Shown piece by piece: positions 3,531-57,377 of a stretch of 64,000 nucleotides of DNA (positions are counted from its first letter, which is position 1; each line of letters starts with the position of its first letter). Made by a program: the position numbers and the translations under genes. Source of the DNA: Streptomyces sp. NBC_00239 (GTDB lineage: Bacteria > Actinomycetota > Actinomycetes > Streptomycetales > Streptomycetaceae). The notes under the pieces are model-generated. The model had not been told where the DNA came from and did not search any database. It was given only the letters and a program-made list of their open reading frames with translations. The DNA is taken from NCBI RefSeq assembly GCF_036194065.1, contig NZ_CP108095.1:2046001-2110000 (forward strand), written 5' to 3'.

Positions 3531-3711
3531 GGGGAACCATCCTCGAATCGCGCGCAGCGAGCGAGTTCCCGTGCGGCCGTAAAACCCTCATTTTAGCCCA
3601 CCGGGTGGTGCCGGCCCCCGGCACCAAGGTGCCCGGTGGCCCACCGGGCGGTCGGCCCCGGGCGCAGCAGCCCGTGGTGCGGCCCGCGGTCGTGTGCGTG
3701 ATCCTGCGTAC

Positions 3712-5208
3712 ATGGGTCAGGACATCGAGGACGTCAGCCCCCCGGACGAGGGGCTCAAGGCCGATGCGATCGGTTTTCTCGACGCCCTCGTGATCGGTCT
3801 GAACTCCACCTCCCCCGCGTATTCGCTGGCCGCCGCGATCGGGCCGATCGTGGCGCTGGTGGGGATCTACGCGCCCGGGGTGATGCTGGCCTCGTTCGTG
3901 CCGATGCTGCTGATCGCCGCGGCGTTCTACTACCTGAACAAGGTGGACCAGGACTGCGGGACGACCTTCTCCTGGGTGACCCGGGCGATGGGGCCGTGGG
4001 CCGGGTGGCTCGGCGGCTGGGCGATCACGATGACCGGTGTCCTGGTGATCGGTTCGCTCGCCGATGTGGCCGTGCGGTTCGGCCTGCTCGCGGCGGGGGC
4101 CGACAGCGCGGCCAACAACGAGGTCGTCCGGCAGTCGCTGACGGTGGTCGTGATCATCGCCATGACCGCGGTGTGCGTGATCGGCACGGAGATGTCGGCG
4201 CGGGTCCAGGACGTGCTGATCCTGGCGCAGGTCTTCTTCCTGCTGGTGTTCGCGGTGGTGGCCATCTACCGGGTGTACGCGGGCACCAGCACGCTGGACT
4301 CGATCGAACCGGAGTTCGGCTGGCTCAACCCCTTCGGCGCGGGCGGGGCGGCGCTCACCGGCGGGCTGCTGCTCGGCGTGTTCATCTACTGGGGCTGGGA
4401 GTCCGCGGTGAACCTCACCGAGGAGGTCAAGGACTCCGCGACCGCACCCGGCAAGGCGGGCATCTGGTCGACGGTGGTGCTGCTGGTGACGTACCTGTCG
4501 GTCGGCTTCGCGGTGGTGGGCTACGCGGGCACCGAGTTCCTCGCCGAGAACGCGGGTGAGGAGGAGGCCGTCTTCGCGGTCCTCGCGCACGAGGTGATGG
4601 GCGGCTGGGACTGGGTGGTGCTGCTCGCGGTGTGCACGTCGGCGCTCGCCTCGACGCAGACCACGATCATCCCGGCGTCCCGGACGGCCCTGTCGATGGC
4701 GCGCCGGCACGCGCTGCCGCACGGGCTGGCGCGCATCCATCCGCGCTTCCGCACGCCCGACGTGAGCACGTGGTGGGTCGCGGGCATCGCGATCGCCTGG
4801 TACCTGATCGTCAACCAGATCAGCGAGAACGCCCTGTTCGACTCGCTCACGGCGCTGTCGCTGCTGATCTCCTTCTACTACGCGCTCACCGGCCTGGCCT
4901 GTGCGATCTACTACCGCCGCCACCTCACGGAGAGCCTGCACAACCTGGTGCTGATCGGGATCGGCCCGGTGGTCGGCGCGCTGCTGCTGGGCTGGCTGCT
5001 GGTCGAGTCGGTCGTCGACATGGCCGACCCGGAGAACTCGTACAGCGGGGTCTCCTGGTTCGGCCTCGGGCCGCCGCTGGTGATCGGGATCGGGATCGCG
5101 CTGACCGGTGTGCTGGTGATGCTGTTCTGGCGGGTGCGGTCGGGCACGTTCTGGCAGGAGCGGCGCGGGGTCGCCGACCCGGACCTCGTCCACGGCCGCA
5201 AGCCCTGA
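3712..5208 (+). CDS. APC-family amino acid permease
   Basis: Integral membrane transporter of 498 residues with about twelve hydrophobic helices. The opening segment (LNSTSPAYSLAAAIGPIVALVG) is typical of amino acid/polyamine/organocation permeases, so it probably imports an amino acid or amine by cation symport. The ATG at 3712 is preferred; an in-frame GTG at 3694 would add six residues. A universal stress protein gene follows after 57 bases in the same direction. This pairing is common in actinomycetes, where the small Usp is thought to act on the transporter or respond to the same stress. Confidence 0.88.
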   Translation: MGQDIEDVSPPDEGLKADAIGFLDALVIGLNSTSPAYSLAAAIGPIVALVGIYAPGVMLASFVPMLLIAAAFYYLNKVDQDCGTTFSWVTRAMGPWAGWLGGWAITMTGVLVIGSLADVAVRFGLLAAGADSAANNEVVRQSLTVVVIIAMTAVCVIGTEMSARVQDVLILAQVFFLLVFAVVAIYRVYAGTSTLDSIEPEFGWLNPFGAGGAALTGGLLLGVFIYWGWESAVNLTEEVKDSATAPGKAGIWSTVVLLVTYLSVGFAVVGYAGTEFLAENAGEEEAVFAVLAHEVMGGWDWVVLLAVCTSALASTQTTIIPASRTALSMARRHALPHGLARIHPRFRTPDVSTWWVAGIAIAWYLIVNQISENALFDSLTALSLLISFYYALTGLACAIYYRRHLTESLHNLVLIGIGPVVGALLLGWLLVESVVDMADPENSYSGVSWFGLGPPLVIGIGIALTGVLVMLFWRVRSGTFWQERRGVADPDLVHGRKP

Positions 5209-5957: not shown

Positions 5958-6788
5958 TCAGGGCGCGACGGGCAGCTGACGCTTGTGCTCGGTGAGGCGG
6001 TAGCGGCGCACGATGGTCGCGTGGGCGGCCTCGTCGACCGGCTTGCCCTCCAGGAAGTCGTCGATGTCGTCGTAGGTCACGCCGAGCGCGTCCTCGTCGG
6101 GCTTGCCCGGGTCGAGGGTCTCCAGGTCGGCGGTCGGGGTCTTCCACACCAGCTCGACCGGGGCGCCCAGGCGCTCCGCGACGGCGCGCACCCGGCGCTT
6201 GGTCAGGCCGGTCAGCGGCACGAGGTCGGCCGCGCCGTCGCCGAACTTGGTGAAGAAGCCGGAGACCGCCTCGGCGGCGTGGTCGGTGCCCACGACCAGG
6301 CCGTCCCGGGCGCCCGCGACGGCGTACTGGGCGACCATGCGCTGGCGGGCCTTGATGTTGCCGTGGACGAAGTCCTGGTGGTGGGCGTCGCGGAAGGCCA
6401 CCCCGGCCGCGGCGGCGGCGTCGAGGGCCGCGTCGCTCGCGGGCTTGATGTCGACGGTCAGGACCTCGTCGGCGGCGATGAACCCGAGGGCGAGCTGGGC
6501 GTCCTTCTCGTCGGCCTGGACGCCGTACGGGAGCCGCATGGCGTAGAACACGGCGGGGTGGCCGGCGGCGCGGGCGCGCTCCACGGCGAGCTGGCAGAGC
6601 CGGCCCGCGGTGGTGGAGTCCACTCCGCCGCTGATGCCGAGGACCAGGGAGCGCAGGCCGGACGAGGTCAGCCGCTCGGCGAGGAAGGCCACCCGGCGCT
6701 CGATCTCCAGCTCCGCGTCGAAGGTCTCGGACACCTGGAGATCCCGGGCGATCTCCTGCTGCAGGGCGGTGGACGCCGGGTCGGTCAC
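5958..6788 (-). CDS. nadE: ammonia-dependent NAD+ synthetase
   Basis: Cytosolic enzyme of 276 residues that amidates nicotinate adenine dinucleotide to NAD+ using ATP and ammonia. The PP-loop is seen as SGGVDS (53-58). The substrate-binding segment [22 protein letters not shown] is intact. The length matches the short ammonia-using NadE form; there is no N-terminal glutaminase domain. The GTG start has GAGGAG a few bases upstream. A hexamer tandem repeat abuts its 3' end. Confidence 0.96.
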
Positions 6789-8620: not shown

Positions 8621-9559
8621 GTGACGAGTGGGGTGCTAGCGGGGTTTCTTGCCTTCCTGCCGATCTGGGCGATCACGGGAGTGGGCTGGGCGGCGGGCCG
8701 GTACGAGGTACTAGGCCCGCACGCCCCGTCCGTGCTCGGCCGGTTCGCCTTCACCTTCGCGATGCCCGCCCTGCTGTTCCTGACGATGGCGCGGTCGCGG
8801 CCGGCCGACCTGGTGCGCCCCGGCGTCCTCGTCTTCGCGCTGAGTCTGCTGTCGGTGTTCGCGGTGGCGCAGGTGCTGACCCACCGGGTGTTCCGGCGCG
8901 GCCCGGGCGACCGGGCCATCGCCTCGATGGCGGCGGCGCACGTCAACTCGGCCAACCTCGGCATCCCGGTGGCCATCCACGTCCTCAAGGACACCTCGTT
9001 CGTGGTGACCGTGGCGCTCTTCCAGACGCTGCTGGTCACCCCGCTGATCCTGGTCCTGATCGACCTCGGGGTGCGGCCGGACTCCGAAGGGCGGCTGCGG
9101 CGGATGGTGTCGCTGCCGCTGCGCAACCCGATCGTCGCGGCCTCGGCGGGCGGGCTGGCCGTGTCCGCGCTGGGGCTGCGGCTGCCCGCCCCGGTCGTGG
9201 ACCCCTTGCAGCTGCTGGGCGGGGCGGCGGTGCCCGCCGCGCTCTTCGCGCTCGGCATGTCGCTGCACTCCCGGACCCGGCCGGACGCCGAAGGCCGGGC
9301 CGAACGCCGGGTGCTCGTCGCACTGAAGGTGGTGGCGCAGCCGGCGCTGGCGTACGCGGTGGGCCGGTGGGTGTTCGGGCTCGACGGTCACGCGCTGCTG
9401 TCGGTGGTCCTGGTGGCCGGGCTGCCCACGGCACAGAACGCCTTCCTGTTCGCCTCGGAGTACCGGCTCGACACCGACCTGGCCCGGGACACCGTGCTGT
9501 TGTCCACGGTCTGCTCGATGGTCTCCCTGTCCGTGATCACCTGGCTGCTCGCCGCCTGA
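8621..9559 (+). CDS. AEC-family transporter (auxin efflux carrier-like)
   Basis: Membrane protein of 312 residues with about ten predicted helices in two halves. The AEC signatures are visible: a first half with FAFTFAMPALLFLTMA, the HVNSANLGIPVAIHVL crossover region, and a second half with ALFALGMSL. Bacterial members export or exchange organic acids or amino acids. The start is GTG at 8621. No partner gene indicates a substrate. Confidence 0.85.
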   Translation: MTSGVLAGFLAFLPIWAITGVGWAAGRYEVLGPHAPSVLGRFAFTFAMPALLFLTMARSRPADLVRPGVLVFALSLLSVFAVAQVLTHRVFRRGPGDRAIASMAAAHVNSANLGIPVAIHVLKDTSFVVTVALFQTLLVTPLILVLIDLGVRPDSEGRLRRMVSLPLRNPIVAASAGGLAVSALGLRLPAPVVDPLQLLGGAAVPAALFALGMSLHSRTRPDAEGRAERRVLVALKVVAQPALAYAVGRWVFGLDGHALLSVVLVAGLPTAQNAFLFASEYRLDTDLARDTVLLSTVCSMVSLSVITWLLAA

Positions 9560-20896: not shown

Positions 20897-21072
20897 ATAG
20901 GATGCCCCTCGGCGGGCCGCCTGGCCCGTCATCGCCGAGGACGGCGACATGGGAGGAAGCCCGGTGAGACTCCGGCGCGGTCCCGCCACTGTGAGCCCGG
21001 CCGCTGCCCTCGCGGCAGCCGGGTGAGTCAGGAACTCCCGCCGTCCACACTGCCCGGGGCGCGGAAACCCCG
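20897..21072 (+). ncRNA. cobalamin riboswitch upstream of cobN
   Basis: The leader of cobN contains the conserved blocks of the adenosylcobalamin riboswitch in order: GGAAGCCCGGTGAGACTCC (from 20954), the B12 box GCCACTGTGA, then GAGTCAGGAACTC. A hairpin CGGGG-N8-CCCCG (21055-21072) abuts the ribosome site GAGGAAGG of cobN and probably masks it when ligand is bound, giving translational repression. Outer limits are approximate. Confidence 0.95.
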
Positions 21073-51325: not shown

Positions 51326-51349
51326 TCTCACCTCACAAGATCCACTGAG

Positions 51350-51440
51350 CCCCTCCGCCCGGAATCGAACCGGGGTCGCCCGCGCGGGGATGGATGCCGG
51401 GGTTGGCGCGCGGTGCTCTTCCTGACTGAGCTACGGAGAG
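51350..51440 (-). tRNA. tRNA-like gene with enlarged anticodon loop
   Basis: The minus strand folds as a cloverleaf: acceptor CTCTCCG/CGGAGGG, D-arm GCTC-N9-GAGC, five-base variable loop GCGAC, and T-arm CCCGG-TTCGATT-CCGGG. The anticodon stem CCGCG/CGCGG is perfect, but its loop is 24 bases instead of 7, so no anticodon can be assigned with confidence. No CCA is encoded. It lies in a phage gap upstream of the membrane microprotein. Confidence 0.6.
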
Positions 51441-55503: not shown

Positions 55504-55662
55504 TTACTCCGTCCCTCGGCGTAGCACGACGGAGAACGAGGCGTCCATGAGCGCCGAGAGGCGCGTGAACTCCGTGACGGCCTCGTCGGCGTCAGTAAAC
55601 GTCTGCTCGTGCTCCTCGCCGTTGCTGTGGTCGTACGTCTCGACGGTGAAACTCTGTGCCAT
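55504..55662 (-). CDS. hypothetical small phage protein
   Basis: Acidic protein of 52 residues (AQSFTVETYDHSNGEEHEQT...). GGAGG lies just before ATG 55662. It is the gene immediately downstream of the tRNA-like element at 55693-55756. Function unknown. Confidence 0.65.
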   Translation of the reverse strand: MAQSFTVETYDHSNGEEHEQTFTDADEAVTEFTRLSALMDASFSVVLRRGTE

Positions 55663-55939: not shown

Positions 55940-55956
55940 CTCTCCTCCTTCGGCCT

Positions 55957-56011
55957 GCCTCATCAGCGCGGGGAGGCCATCACCCGCGGACGCCCCGGAG
56001 GGCGTTTCGGC
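55957..56011 (-). ncRNA. type II hammerhead ribozyme, copy 1
   Basis: Complete hammerhead core on the minus strand. Order: stem II strand GCC; GAAA; stem III ACGCCC-UCCG-GGGCGU; cleavage triplet GUC; stem I CGCGGG-N10-CCCGCG; CUGAUGA; stem II strand GGC. Stems I and III are closed and stem II is open, which defines type II. Cleavage is predicted between 55989 and 55988. Stem II may continue through an internal loop to CUUC/GAAG (55948-56017). The 5' end lies in the UAG stop codon of the upstream gene. Confidence 0.92.
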
Positions 56012-56169
56012 TAGAAGTACTTGCGCTTGCCGTGCGCCTCGTTCAGGCGGACTGCCTTGCGGACGGCCCACGCGAGGCGGGTGTACGTCTTCGTCCAGGT
56101 GGCGCCGTCGCGCGTGTCCTTGACGACGTAGCCGTGGCGGACCTCTACCACCTGAAACCGCGCGGCCAT
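56011..56169 (-). CDS. small basic phage protein
   Basis: Protein of 52 residues (AARFQVVEVRHGYVVKDTRDGA...), beta-rich then basic helix (RKAVRLNEAHGKRKYF). GGAGGG precedes ATG 56169, which overlaps the previous stop (TGATG). Its own UAG stop forms the first bases of hammerhead ribozyme 1. Confidence 0.7.
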   Translation of the reverse strand: MAARFQVVEVRHGYVVKDTRDGATWTKTYTRLAWAVRKAVRLNEAHGKRKYF

Positions 56170-56402
56170 CAGCCCTCCGTCGGCGCGAACTGGCAGAGCT
56201 TCGCGATGTTCCCGCCGCACTCCTCCAGCAGCGCTGGCGTGAGCATGGCGGTCCGGTCGTACTTGTTCCACAGGTCCGCTTCGACGTGGAACCGCTCGTC
56301 CAGGTCGATGAAGGCGTTCACGAGGGCGGAGGCCTCGTACGCGTCGCGTCGGTTGACGACGAGGTGCGTGTGCGGGCCGTCGATGTAGACGTTGTAGGAC
56401 AC
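56169..56402 (-). CDS. hypothetical phage protein
   Basis: Protein of 77 residues from GTG 56402 with GGAGGAG upstream (SYNVYIDGPHTHLVVNRRDAY...). The start lies 21 bases beyond the 3' end of hammerhead ribozyme 2. A helical acidic second half follows. Function unknown. Confidence 0.7.
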   Translation of the reverse strand: MSYNVYIDGPHTHLVVNRRDAYEASALVNAFIDLDERFHVEADLWNKYDRTAMLTPALLEECGGNIAKLCQFAPTEG

Positions 56403-56422
56403 GGTGTCTCCTCCTGTGGTCT

Positions 56423-56477
56423 GCCTCGTCAGGCCCGGTAGACCAGTTCCGGGCGACGCCCCAGAGGGCGTTTCGGC
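56423..56477 (-). ncRNA. type II hammerhead ribozyme, copy 2
   Basis: Same architecture as copy 1, 466 bases upstream on the transcript. GCC; GAAA; stem III ACGCCC-UCUG-GGGCGU; GUC; stem I GCCCGG-N10-CCGGGC; CUGACGA (position 7 is free to vary); GGC. Three of six stem I pairs differ from copy 1 by compensatory change (C-G to G-C or the reverse). Cleavage is predicted between 56455 and 56454. It starts four bases after the UGA stop of the upstream gene and ends just before the next ribosome site. Confidence 0.92.
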
Positions 56478-56481
56478 TGTG

Positions 56482-56742: not shown

Positions 56743-56792
56743 GCCCCGGACGGAAGTCGAATCCGCCGACCCTTGCGGGCCACCATCGGGGC
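56743..56792 (-). ncRNA. tRNA-like element C (no D-arm)
   Basis: Minus-strand fold of 50 bases: acceptor stem GCCCCG/CGGGGC, mini-hairpin CCC-GCAA-GGG, and T-arm GCGGA-TTCGACT-TCCGT. A competing hairpin CCACCA/TGGTGG presents the 5' acceptor strand in its loop, so a pseudoknot is possible. It begins eight bases after a UAG stop codon. Confidence 0.55.
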
Positions 56793-56800
56793 TGGTGGTG

Positions 56801-56995
56801 CTAGTTGTTGTCGCCGTCGCCGTCACCGGGGCAGCTGTCAAACGCCCGGCGCCCGCACCCGGGGCAGATCTCCCCGGCGTCCGCGTCCGGGTGCTTGTCC
56901 GTGAAGTAGGCCGTGTCGGCGTCGGCGTCCTCCTGCGTGGCGTACGGGCCGCTCAAGAGAACGTCGCCGTTGTGGGCGAACACTGCGTAAGTCAT
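56801..56995 (-). CDS. small acidic zinc-ribbon-like phage protein
   Basis: Protein of 64 residues with a C-terminal CPGCGRRAFDSC motif and a strongly acidic middle and tail. The N-terminus (TYAVFAHNGDVLLSGPYATQEDA) resembles small phage proteins of unknown role. GAGGAGAG precedes the ATG. tRNA-like elements D and C lie directly upstream and downstream. Confidence 0.7.
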   Translation of the reverse strand: MTYAVFAHNGDVLLSGPYATQEDADADTAYFTDKHPDADAGEICPGCGRRAFDSCPGDGDGDNN

Positions 56996-57074: not shown

Positions 57075-57377
57075 TCAGAACAGCGACGGCGCTTCCGACT
57101 CCGCAGACAGGCGCTCCATCGTGGTGCCGCCCCCGATAAACCCGTGTCCCCGGCGGGTTCTGACGAGGTGGTCGGCCTGGACCCGAGTCGAGTAGCGCCC
57201 AGGGCCGAAGGTGACCGTGACGCCCATGGACTCGTACGAGCCGTAGGGGCCGTCACACCGCGTCGGGCCGGACGATACAAACATTTCGTTCGTTCGACCG
57301 TCGCGAGTGACCTTCACGCGCTCACCGATCTTCAGGGACTGTATGAAGGTGATTGCCGCCGACATCTCCGGGCTCAT
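57075..57377 (-). CDS. hypothetical phage protein, first gene of the punctuated operon
   Basis: Protein of 100 residues. The middle is a beta-rich segment with a KOW/SH3-like feel (IGERVKVTRDGRTNEMFVSSG, MGVTVTFGPGRYSTRVQADH). GGAGGAAG precedes ATG 57377. It is first behind promoter/operator copy 2. Confidence 0.72.
   Translation of the reverse strand: MSPEMSAAITFIQSLKIGERVKVTRDGRTNEMFVSSGPTRCDGPYGSYESMGVTVTFGPGRYSTRVQADHLVRTRRGHGFIGGGTTMERLSAESEAPSLF

What the first reader, a model, noticed from the sequence alone, without database searches (positions are those of the whole stretch)
55957..56477. Two type II hammerhead ribozymes between small phage genes
Both copies have every invariant core position (GAAA, GUC, CUGANGA), closed stems I and III and an open stem II. 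Three stem I pairs covary between copies, so RNA structure is being kept. Each sits between a stop codon and the next ribosome site in a leftward phage operon, so self-cleavage would cut the polycistronic mRNA into gene-sized pieces. Type II hammerheads are known but uncommon; a pair acting as operon punctuation in an actinophage would be new to my knowledge.
Basis: partly seen in the sequence, partly recalled or inferred. Interest (0 to 1): 0.95.

Follow-up and report, generated by a model that had tools for sequence, protein, structure and literature searches.

The report
Ribozyme and tRNA-mimic phage gene punctuation
The early genes of a Streptomyces-type prophage are separated by two self-cleaving hammerhead RNAs and several small tRNA look-alikes, and in similar prophages such a pair of RNA marks brackets a slot whose gene is often different, suggesting that these phages use RNA-cutting marks to divide long messages into gene-sized pieces.

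Summary
Both copies are type II hammerheads (RF02276, 53.2 and 49.7 bits, cut-off 37), the only two found in the host genome; stem I has three compensatory changes. The punctuation idea is plausible but not new: Perreault et al. 2011 (PMC3088659, passages) found type II hammerheads common in bacteria and proposed processing of prophage transcripts.

Three results go further. (1) In five R4-like Streptomyces phages, hammerhead matches fill 38 of 46 early spacers of 50 nt or more. (2) In nine prophage loci a hammerhead and a tRNA-like element (TLE) bracket one small gene at near-fixed spacing; the nine proteins fall in eight families. (3) Another spacer of the same operon holds a 47-nt mini tRNA-like element (mTLE) whose family covaries (6 of 15 pairs changed on both sides, 0/500 shuffles) and is in 59 of 392 congeneric genomes (hand count); no Rfam family matched it in the window.

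Best explanation: the early mRNA is cut at RNA joints, by self-cleavage at hammerheads and probably by RNase P/RNase Z at tRNA mimics, giving gene-sized mRNAs. Cleavage is inferred, not shown.

The parts
56415..56478 (-). Type II hammerhead ribozyme 1, between gene C and gene D; predicted cleavage between 56455 and 56454
   Evidence: RF02276 53.2 bits; core and stems parsed
55949..56012 (-). Type II hammerhead ribozyme 2, between gene E and slot gene F; predicted cleavage between 55989 and 55988
   Evidence: RF02276 49.7 bits
55693..55755 (-). tRNA-like element TLE3 (7-bp acceptor, T arm, middle hairpin; no D arm), 7 nt after the stop of gene F
   Evidence: geometry scan, fold, family alignment A1, model R1 62.4 bits
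57019..57065 (-). mini tRNA-like element mTLE1 (47 nt: 7-bp acceptor, 3-bp hairpin, 5-bp T arm), 9 nt after the stop of gene A
   Evidence: family A2 and A3; model R2 69.0 bits
56742..56792 (-). tRNA-like element TLE2 (6-bp acceptor, hairpin, T arm), 8 nt after the stop of gene B; weakest of the three
   Evidence: fold; R2 only 21.4 bits, E 0.62; one homologue in G186 (L248) with a C-G to U-A change in the acceptor and the same fold. The scan scored it through another 5' strand at 56832 inside gene B
51349..51440 (-). tRNA-Trp-like gene with a long anticodon loop, in a later spacer of the same strand
   Evidence: ARAGORN; Rfam tRNA 40.6 bits
55763..55939 (-). gene F, 58 aa, the one-gene slot between hammerhead 2 and TLE3; start codon 9 nt after the ribozyme end
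   Evidence: no PHROG match
57075..57377 (-). gene A, 100 aa, upstream of mTLE1
56801..56995 (-). gene B, 64 aa, between mTLE1 and TLE2
   Evidence: similar gene after an mTLE in L249
56482..56709 (-). gene C, 75 aa, between TLE2 and hammerhead 1
   Evidence: phrog_15616, unknown function
56169..56402 (-). gene D, 77 aa, after hammerhead 1
56011..56169 (-). gene E, 52 aa; its UAG stop overlaps the first two bases of hammerhead 2
55504..55662 (-). gene G, 52 aa, after TLE3; its homologue (75% identity) sits in the slot before the TLE in L043
58545..59339 (-). phage sigma factor near the head of the conserved gene order

Best explanation
The region is the early operon of a Samy-like prophage (Samy is a relative of phiC31), read leftward. 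From 57.1 to 55.7 kb each spacer between genes holds one compact RNA element directly after a stop codon and directly before the next ribosome site. Two are type II hammerheads. Three are tRNA-like elements made of an acceptor stem, a hairpin and a T arm. The hammerheads cut themselves after GUC. The upstream mRNA is left with a 3' hairpin and a cyclic phosphate; the downstream mRNA begins with a 5'-hydroxyl on a stable stem, next to its Shine-Dalgarno sequence. The tRNA mimics are probably cut by host RNase P at the 5' side of the acceptor and perhaps by RNase Z on the 3' side. The result would be separate one- or two-gene mRNAs with protected ends from one long transcript. Because each joint carries its own processing signal, single genes between joints can be exchanged without upsetting their neighbours. 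Shown here: presence, structure, covariation, position, co-occurrence and difference of the bracketed gene. Inferred: cleavage, the enzymes, mRNA stability effects, and that the elements are kept because of cleavage.
For: Rfam matches well above cut-off. In 90 parsed hammerheads the variable pairs of stems I and III pair at 90-100% against 45-68% after shuffling, and 83 of 90 have GUC (the parser chooses the cleavage site that pairs best, which favours pairing). In five R4-like phages 52 matches at E 0.001 (43 over the Rfam cut-off) all lie on the strand of the early genes; 41 of 52 overlap annotated genes by 5 nt or less (random 65-mers 1-10%) and 38 of 46 spacers of 50 nt or more within the hammerhead span hold one. 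Strict tRNA-like scan of the window: 4 hits of score 6.6 or more, all minus strand in this region, against a mean of 0.08 and a maximum of 1 in 60 simulated windows. mTLE family: 6 of 15 pairs with changes on both sides, 0/500 shuffles, both in the copies my scan selected (99.8% paired) and in a set chosen without that filter (98.8% paired); 22 of 36 follow a same-strand gene stop within 30 nt, against 4 of 36 read from the other side and 11% at random positions. 9 of the 13 congeneric genomes with TLE3-type elements also have a hammerhead (16 of 392 do), in all nine 143-282 nt upstream on the same strand. Near-fixed spacing in nine loci: start codon at +73 or +74 from the ribozyme's first base, stop 5-8 nt before the TLE. 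Slot proteins: nine loci, eight families; wider strict-pattern set, 14 distinct proteins, 10 families. Precedent: prophage hammerheads flanking ardA cleave in vitro and in E. coli, and a halovirus transcript 5' end maps within 3 nt of a hammerhead site 13 nt before a start codon (PMC3088659).
Against: No cleavage was measured, and 4 of 18 consensus hammerheads tested by Perreault et al. were inactive in vitro. The minimum-energy fold without the pseudoknot is not the hammerhead: it lies 1.0 and 1.1 kcal/mol above the optimum, about 3 for copy 2 by the value, and neither RNA folds better than shuffles (z -0.8 and -0.3). Stem II shows covariation at its middle pair only, and the pseudoknot is only mildly enriched (5 bp or more in 56% against 34%). 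The joints are dispensable: Samy keeps only a hammerhead 5' half fused to a TLE, and L249 only a 3' half. 8 of 20 viral contigs with the TLE3 signature have no hammerhead match and a ninth only a marginal one. The acceptor stem of both TLE families hardly varies, so covariation does not support it there; the one exception is TLE2 and its single homologue. For TLE3 the number of pairs with two-sided changes is no higher than in shuffles (217/500). Counting hits of any score, the window's 4 tRNA-like hits do not exceed simulation (mean 2.5, maximum 6). RNase P or Z action is untested.
Confidence: 0.62

Rival explanations
1. The elements are kept mainly as recombination joints. Similar hammerhead and TLE sequences in many phages give short homologies at which small gene cassettes are exchanged, and cleavage is incidental.
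For: The bracketed gene differs in most relatives while the RNA elements stay. Two gene losses have their end points inside the elements: Samy and L249.
Against: Stems covary with sequence change in hammerheads and mTLEs, which homology alone does not explain; the cores are kept as RNA cores; mTLE copies also sit beside genes of conjugative or integrative elements.
Confidence: 0.17
2. The elements act as terminators, attenuators or simple mRNA-end stabilisers without cleavage.
For: They are G+C-rich hairpins in spacers; actinophage terminators without a U tract are known (recalled, not looked up).
Against: A terminator needs neither the hammerhead core nor a T-loop; both are kept. Genes follow each element at once, so strong termination would silence them.
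Confidence: 0.1
3. The TLEs are decaying or working tRNA genes, and their neighbourhood to hammerheads is accidental.
For: ARAGORN of the 12 TLE3-family loci among 15 loci scanned tRNA-Gly with anticodon CCC at that place, and one in L249 tRNA-Glu; 21 of 94 mini-model matches are 73-75 nt long, the size of ordinary tRNAs.
Against: No D arm by alignment and fold; the loop has C where tRNAs have U33; window TLE1-3 have no tRNA match at E 10 and are not called by ARAGORN; mTLEs have no room for an anticodon arm yet covary; the place after a hammerhead is constant in nine genomes.
Confidence: 0.1

Closest known systems
Clustered hammerheads in prophages (Perreault et al. 2011, PMC3088659)
   Same: Type II hammerheads near or flanking single genes in prophages, proposed to cut long transcripts; the genes are said not to be constant
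   Different: No tRNA-like partners in the parts read (passages, first part of the Discussion); here a hammerhead-gene-TLE bracket is conserved while the gene differs, and R4-like phages carry 9-12 hammerhead matches per early region
Halovirus HF1/HF2 hammerhead (PMC3088659, Discussion)
   Same: Hammerhead 13 nt before a start codon in an early operon, 5' end mapped near the cleavage site
   Different: A variant hammerhead in a virus of haloarchaea; no array is described in the part read
tRNA punctuation of mitochondrial transcripts (recalled)
   Same: Structured tRNAs between genes are excised by RNase P and RNase Z to free mRNAs
   Different: Here the elements are tRNA mimics of about 46-78 nt without D arm, mixed with ribozymes, in phage and integrative elements; enzyme action untested
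tRNA family RF00005
   Same: Acceptor stem, T arm and T-loop
   Different: No D arm, no proper anticodon loop, no Rfam match for window TLE1-3

Membership tests
Type II hammerhead ribozyme (RF02276) | Covariance-model score above the gathering score | tested here: met
   53.2 and 49.7 bits against 37
Type II hammerhead ribozyme (RF02276) | Core GAAA, NUH, CUGANGA; stems I and III closed, stem II open | tested here: met
Type II hammerhead ribozyme (RF02276) | Loop I-tail pseudoknot | tested here: inconclusive
   6 bp possible in both copies, with one compensatory change, but only mildly enriched in the whole set
Type II hammerhead ribozyme (RF02276) | Self-cleavage after the NUH triplet | not testable with these tools
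   needs transcription in vitro
Clustered prophage hammerheads (Perreault 2011) | Two or more hammerheads flanking genes in a phage operon | tested here: met
tRNA (RF00005) | Acceptor stem and T arm with T-loop | tested here: met
tRNA (RF00005) | D arm and anticodon arm with U33 | tested here: not met
   no Rfam tRNA match at E 10 for window TLE1-3
RNase P substrate | Cleavage at the 5' end of the acceptor stem | not testable with these tools
   inferred from the acceptor-T-arm helix, the minimal determinant as recalled

The most novel reading that the evidence does not exclude
Streptomyces phages and integrative elements use a mixed set of interchangeable RNA cutting joints (type II hammerheads, in one prophage also a pistol ribozyme, and an undescribed family of minimal tRNA mimics cut by host RNase P and RNase Z) that divides early polycistronic RNA into gene-sized mRNAs and creates plug-in slots for single accessory genes.
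Probability: 0.4. Interest if true: 0.88.

Novelty: new variant of a known kind. Interest (0 to 1): 0.72.

Why it matters
The role of prokaryotic hammerheads is called an open question in a 2017 review (PMC6155905, passages). Phages with 9-12 hammerhead matches in successive spacers, and a bracket whose ribozyme stays while its gene differs, make the question testable with one end-mapping experiment. The mini tRNA-like family, with strong covariation and no Rfam match in the window scan, would be a new structured RNA and would show mobile elements borrowing tRNA-processing enzymes to cut mRNA. It may also mark accessory, perhaps anti-defence, genes: in phage Celia an OCR-like antirestriction gene lies between two sub-threshold hammerhead matches (29.0 and 31.3 bits).

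Tried and rejected
Tried without result: relatives by the sigma factor in viral contigs, by gene A in genome contigs, by gene C in viral contigs: none confirmed. Paper searches: hammerheads with phage, prophage, Streptomyces or actinophage and tRNA-like elements with phage, RNase P or Streptomyces. In the listings I saw no title on this arrangement; one search listed 10 of 18 papers, 10 of 27 and 15 of 185, so not all were seen, and the library lacks most subscription papers. Searches gave nothing useful. Papers read: PMC3088659 (passages, first part of the Discussion), PMC6155905 (passages), PMC11302927 on Samy (passages); none whole.

Rejected: chance motif; att-site remnants, since a matching 5' acceptor strand is present and copies repeat within one element; TLEs as decoding tRNAs. 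In the five R4-like early regions neither TLE model matched at E 1, so the TLE is not a general partner of hammerheads.

Dropped or special rows: one search left out 3 hammerheads that could not be parsed (L019, L031 5809, L059 1234). A1 has 23 sequences; L068, L181, L183, L184, L038 and L045 were left out as repeats, cut off, or altered. A2 holds copies passed by a scan that demands a paired T stem and acceptor, so its 99.8% is partly by selection; repeat the count on all 47 model matches in the same loci, including ones with mispairs. One search took five phages out of 126 matched records, left out opposite-strand genes of phiScoe1 and genes beyond 11.8 kb in R4; over all fetched stretches the count is 38 of 54 spacers. 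Its 11 hammerheads overlapping genes by more than 5 nt are 8 in R4, 1 in Celia, 2 in Thestral; I suspect the annotation but did not test it. In one search, 36 names were given, 32 printed a line, 31 had a TLE start and 15 a full strict-pattern hammerhead; L037, L039, L191 and L192 did not match the TLE pattern and L045 not the hammerhead pattern, though L037, L039 and L045 are counted. L183, L193/L249 and L038 repeat other loci. One search was counted by hand. Slot families rest on BLASTP at E 0.001; distant kinship was not tested.

Full report
CHECK OF THE OBSERVATION. The Rfam type II hammerhead model matches the window twice, at 56478-56415 (53.2 bits, E 3.9e-08) and 56012-55949 (49.7 bits, E 3.3e-07), both on the minus strand and over the full model; the gathering score is 37. 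The same search of the host genome found no other match. A strict motif search finds 2 matches in the window and none in 200 shuffled windows. Pairs 1, 2 and 4 of stem I differ by compensatory changes. A pseudoknot between loop I and the 3' tail, described for type II by Perreault et al. (PMC3088659, passages), can form in both copies: UGGUCU/AGACCA and UGGCCU/AGGCCG, with one compensatory change. Plain energy folding does not give the hammerhead as the best fold; without the pseudoknot it lies 1.0 and 1.1 kcal/mol above the optimum (one search gives a lower optimum for copy 2, so about 3 there).

WHERE IT LIES. Gene order, read leftward, is DNA polymerase, sigma factor, a series of very small genes, and a gene with weak excisionase-type PHROG matches. 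Much of this order is in Streptomyces phage Samy, which its authors relate to phiC31 (PMC11302927, passages), and in loci of six congeneric genomes. The two hammerheads lie among the small genes. Hammerhead 1 starts 3 nt after the stop of gene C. Hammerhead 2 overlaps the UAG stop of gene E. In both cases AGGAGG follows at the end of the ribozyme.

A strict scan for a tRNA-type acceptor stem plus T arm gave 4 hits in 64 kb, both strands scanned. All four are on the minus strand in this region: 57065-57020, 56832-56743, 55755-55694, and the ARAGORN tRNA-Trp at 51440. All score 6.6 or more; simulated windows gave 0.08 such hits on average and at most 1 in 60, though hits of any score averaged 2.5. 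The second hit was scored through a 5' strand at 56832 inside gene B; folding prefers a 6-bp acceptor that starts at 56792, and I take that as the element. The order from 57.1 to 55.7 kb is thus gene A, mTLE1, gene B, TLE2, gene C, hammerhead 1, genes D and E (overlapping), hammerhead 2, gene F, TLE3, gene G. Each spacer there holds one element, starting from 2 nt before to 9 nt after the end of the preceding stop codon.

THE TLE3 FAMILY. An exact 22-base 3' signature of TLE3 is in 20 viral contigs. Aligned with others (A1, 23 sequences) the element has an acceptor GCCCCGC/GCGGGGC, a short linker, a middle hairpin and the T arm. Acceptor and T stem are paired in 100% of cells, but the T arm and the acceptor's 3' strand were fixed by the search pattern for most members. 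The middle helices are paired in 84-85% of cells, with two-sided changes at 3 pairs in 8 cells; 7 of 500 shuffles reach that cell count and 217 of 500 that pair count. ARAGORN of 12 loci of this family tRNA-Gly (CCC), but there is no D arm and the loop lacks U33. A model of it (R1) matches 13 of 392 congeneric genomes. Nine of these 13 are also among the 16 of 392 with a type II hammerhead match (15 over the cut-off). In all nine the TLE starts 143-282 nt downstream of the hammerhead on the same strand.

THE BRACKETED SLOT. In these nine loci one clear gene of 42-88 aa lies between hammerhead and TLE (genes chosen by my script from Shine-Dalgarno fit and length). Its start codon is at +73 or +74 counted from the first ribozyme base and its stop ends 5-8 nt before the TLE. 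The nine proteins fall in eight families; only L038 and L042 are alike (44%). Two of the nine loci, L037 and L042, showed no match to the window's other genes but resemble each other. The slot gene of L043 is 75% identical to window gene G, which lies after the TLE in the window. With viral contigs, 15 loci by a strict pattern gave 14 distinct slot proteins in 10 families; six of these loci are also among the nine, start codons range from +73 to +79, and in L127 the first gene ends 230 nt before the TLE. Two broken forms are informative. Samy has a hammerhead 5' half fused to a TLE with no slot gene (no hammerhead match in the whole record). L249 has a hammerhead 3' half after a hairpin remnant, then slot gene and TLE. 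So deletions can end inside the elements and the ribozyme can be lost.

R4-LIKE PHAGES. Whole-record searches gave 12, 10, 11, 10 and 9 hammerhead matches at E 0.001 in phages Paedore, Celia, Thestral, phiScoe1 and R4, 52 in all, 43 of them over the Rfam cut-off, all on the strand of the early genes and within about 10 kb. Of 52, 41 overlap annotated genes by at most 5 nt; random 65-mers do so at 1-10%. Of 46 spacers of 50 nt or more within the hammerhead span, 38 hold one (38 of 54 over the whole stretches used); in 30 of 52 the next start codon is 15-20 nt after the ribozyme. Eight of the 11 exceptions are in R4, where annotated small genes (gp60.1, gp67.1, gp75.1) coincide with ribozymes. 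No TLE of either kind was found in these five early regions at E 1.

HAMMERHEAD COVARIATION. I parsed 90 distinct hammerheads from the window, congeneric genomes, named phages and viral contigs. Variable pairs of stems I and III pair at 90-100% against 45-68% after shuffling; the parser picks the cleavage site that pairs best, which favours this somewhat. Stem II covaries at its middle pair only. A pseudoknot of 5 bp or more is possible in 56%, against 34% with shuffled tails.

THE MINI ELEMENT. A DNA search with the mTLE1-TLE2 stretch gave many short matches to mTLE1 in congeneric genomes. Fetched copies form a family of about 46-50 nt: acceptor GCCCCGG/CCGGGGC, a 3-bp hairpin, a T arm with a loop that is mostly AUCGAAU or AUCGACU. 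On 35 distinct sequences that passed my scan, 99.8% of cells pair and 6 of 15 pairs change on both sides, in 25 cells; none of 500 shuffles reaches any of the five measures. The scan demands pairing, so I repeated the count on all 47 model matches in the same loci (45 distinct, found without the scan): 98.8% paired, 6 pairs and 32 cells with two-sided changes, 0 of 500 shuffles (1 of 500 for pair types). The acceptor itself is almost invariant. The model (R2) has 94 matches in 79 of 392 congeneric genomes; by hand count 73 matches, in 59 genomes, are 45-60 nt and 21 are 73-75 nt, the size of ordinary tRNAs. Of 198 genomes drawn from the phylum 4 match; 2 are outside the genus, at 42.6 and 43 bits, and one of those is of tRNA length. 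Of 36 copies 22 follow the stop of a same-strand open frame of 50 aa or more within 30 nt, against 4 read from the other side and 11% at random places. Among 19 neighbouring proteins scanned, Pfam names include FtsK/SpoIIIE, DUF2637, a cytosine methylase and a sub-threshold integrase match, so a number of copies probably lie in integrative or conjugative elements. A permissive Rfam scan of the window region (E 10) had no match at any of the three TLEs.

TLE2. It is the weakest (R2 21.4 bits, E 0.62). One homologue, in G186 (L248), folds alike and replaces an acceptor C-G pair by U-A (GCCCCG/CGGGGC to GCCCUG/CAGGGC), a single compensatory change.

OTHER ELEMENTS NEARBY. Locus L035 (G224) has three hammerheads, a pistol ribozyme (70.9 bits) and a weak TLE-like hairpin (E 0.13-0.17) in one run of genes on one strand. 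Viral contigs L132 and L156 have short acceptor-T-arm elements 0.6 and 1.1 kb from an Rfam hammerhead on the same strand; L066 has one near a pattern match that does not reach the Rfam cut-off. These are a few out of 120 contigs scanned and no background rate was worked out for them.

MECHANISM. Hammerhead chemistry leaves a 2',3'-cyclic phosphate upstream and a 5'-hydroxyl downstream (established knowledge). Here the upstream product would end in the stem III hairpin and the downstream one begin with stem I. RNase P needs little more than a stacked acceptor and T stem (recalled), which is what all TLE forms keep. I therefore think both classes are processing joints. Structure and arrangement are shown; cleavage and its effect are inferred.

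KNOWN AND NEW. Hammerheads clustered around prophage genes, and their reading as transcript processors, were published in 2011 (PMC3088659; passages, first part of the Discussion); the 2017 review (PMC6155905, passages) calls the role open. In the listings I saw no paper on hammerheads in Streptomyces phages or on such tRNA-like spacers; the library is open-access only and some listings were cut. New here, to the extent of these searches: the dense arrays of R4-like phages, the hammerhead-gene-TLE bracket with differing gene, and the mini tRNA-like family.

Noticed in passing
window 20932-21037 (+): Cobalamin riboswitch, 38.4 bits.
   Followed up: no
window about 58381, 54682, 57452, 54650, 60205: Repeated palindromes (CTCCGTAAGTCGACTTACGGAG) and repeats around CTTGTGGAGTACTCATCAAG before gene groups; they look like the operators and early promoters of phiC31-type phages (recalled).
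   Followed up: no
L035 10683-10528 (-) and about 11015 (-): A 16S rRNA-like fragment (75 bits, model positions 107-310) and a stretch that looks like an rRNA-operon leader lie upstream of the hammerhead and pistol array in G224.
   Followed up: partly
L032 (phage R4) gp60.1 8998-9081, gp67.1 6626-6718, gp75.1 3669-3770: Annotated tiny genes coincide with type II hammerheads and are probably not genes.
   Followed up: partly
L029 (phage Celia) 2720-3142: OCR-like antirestriction gene with a sub-threshold hammerhead match on each side (29.0 and 31.3 bits), recalling ardA in Agrobacterium.
   Followed up: no
L004 (Dulem virus 39): Phage from lemur faeces with three type II hammerhead matches (two over the cut-off), a RAGATH-27 RNA and four tRNA matches in 12 kb.
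   Followed up: no
L040 9254-9297, L038 9702-9745, L041 9593-9636: Weak mini-element matches (about 26 bits, E 0.07-0.11) a few hundred bases after the TLE in three related loci, perhaps further joints.
   Followed up: no
window 51440-51349 (-): tRNA-Trp call with a roughly 20-nt anticodon loop by eye; may be another tRNA-like spacer element.
   Followed up: partly
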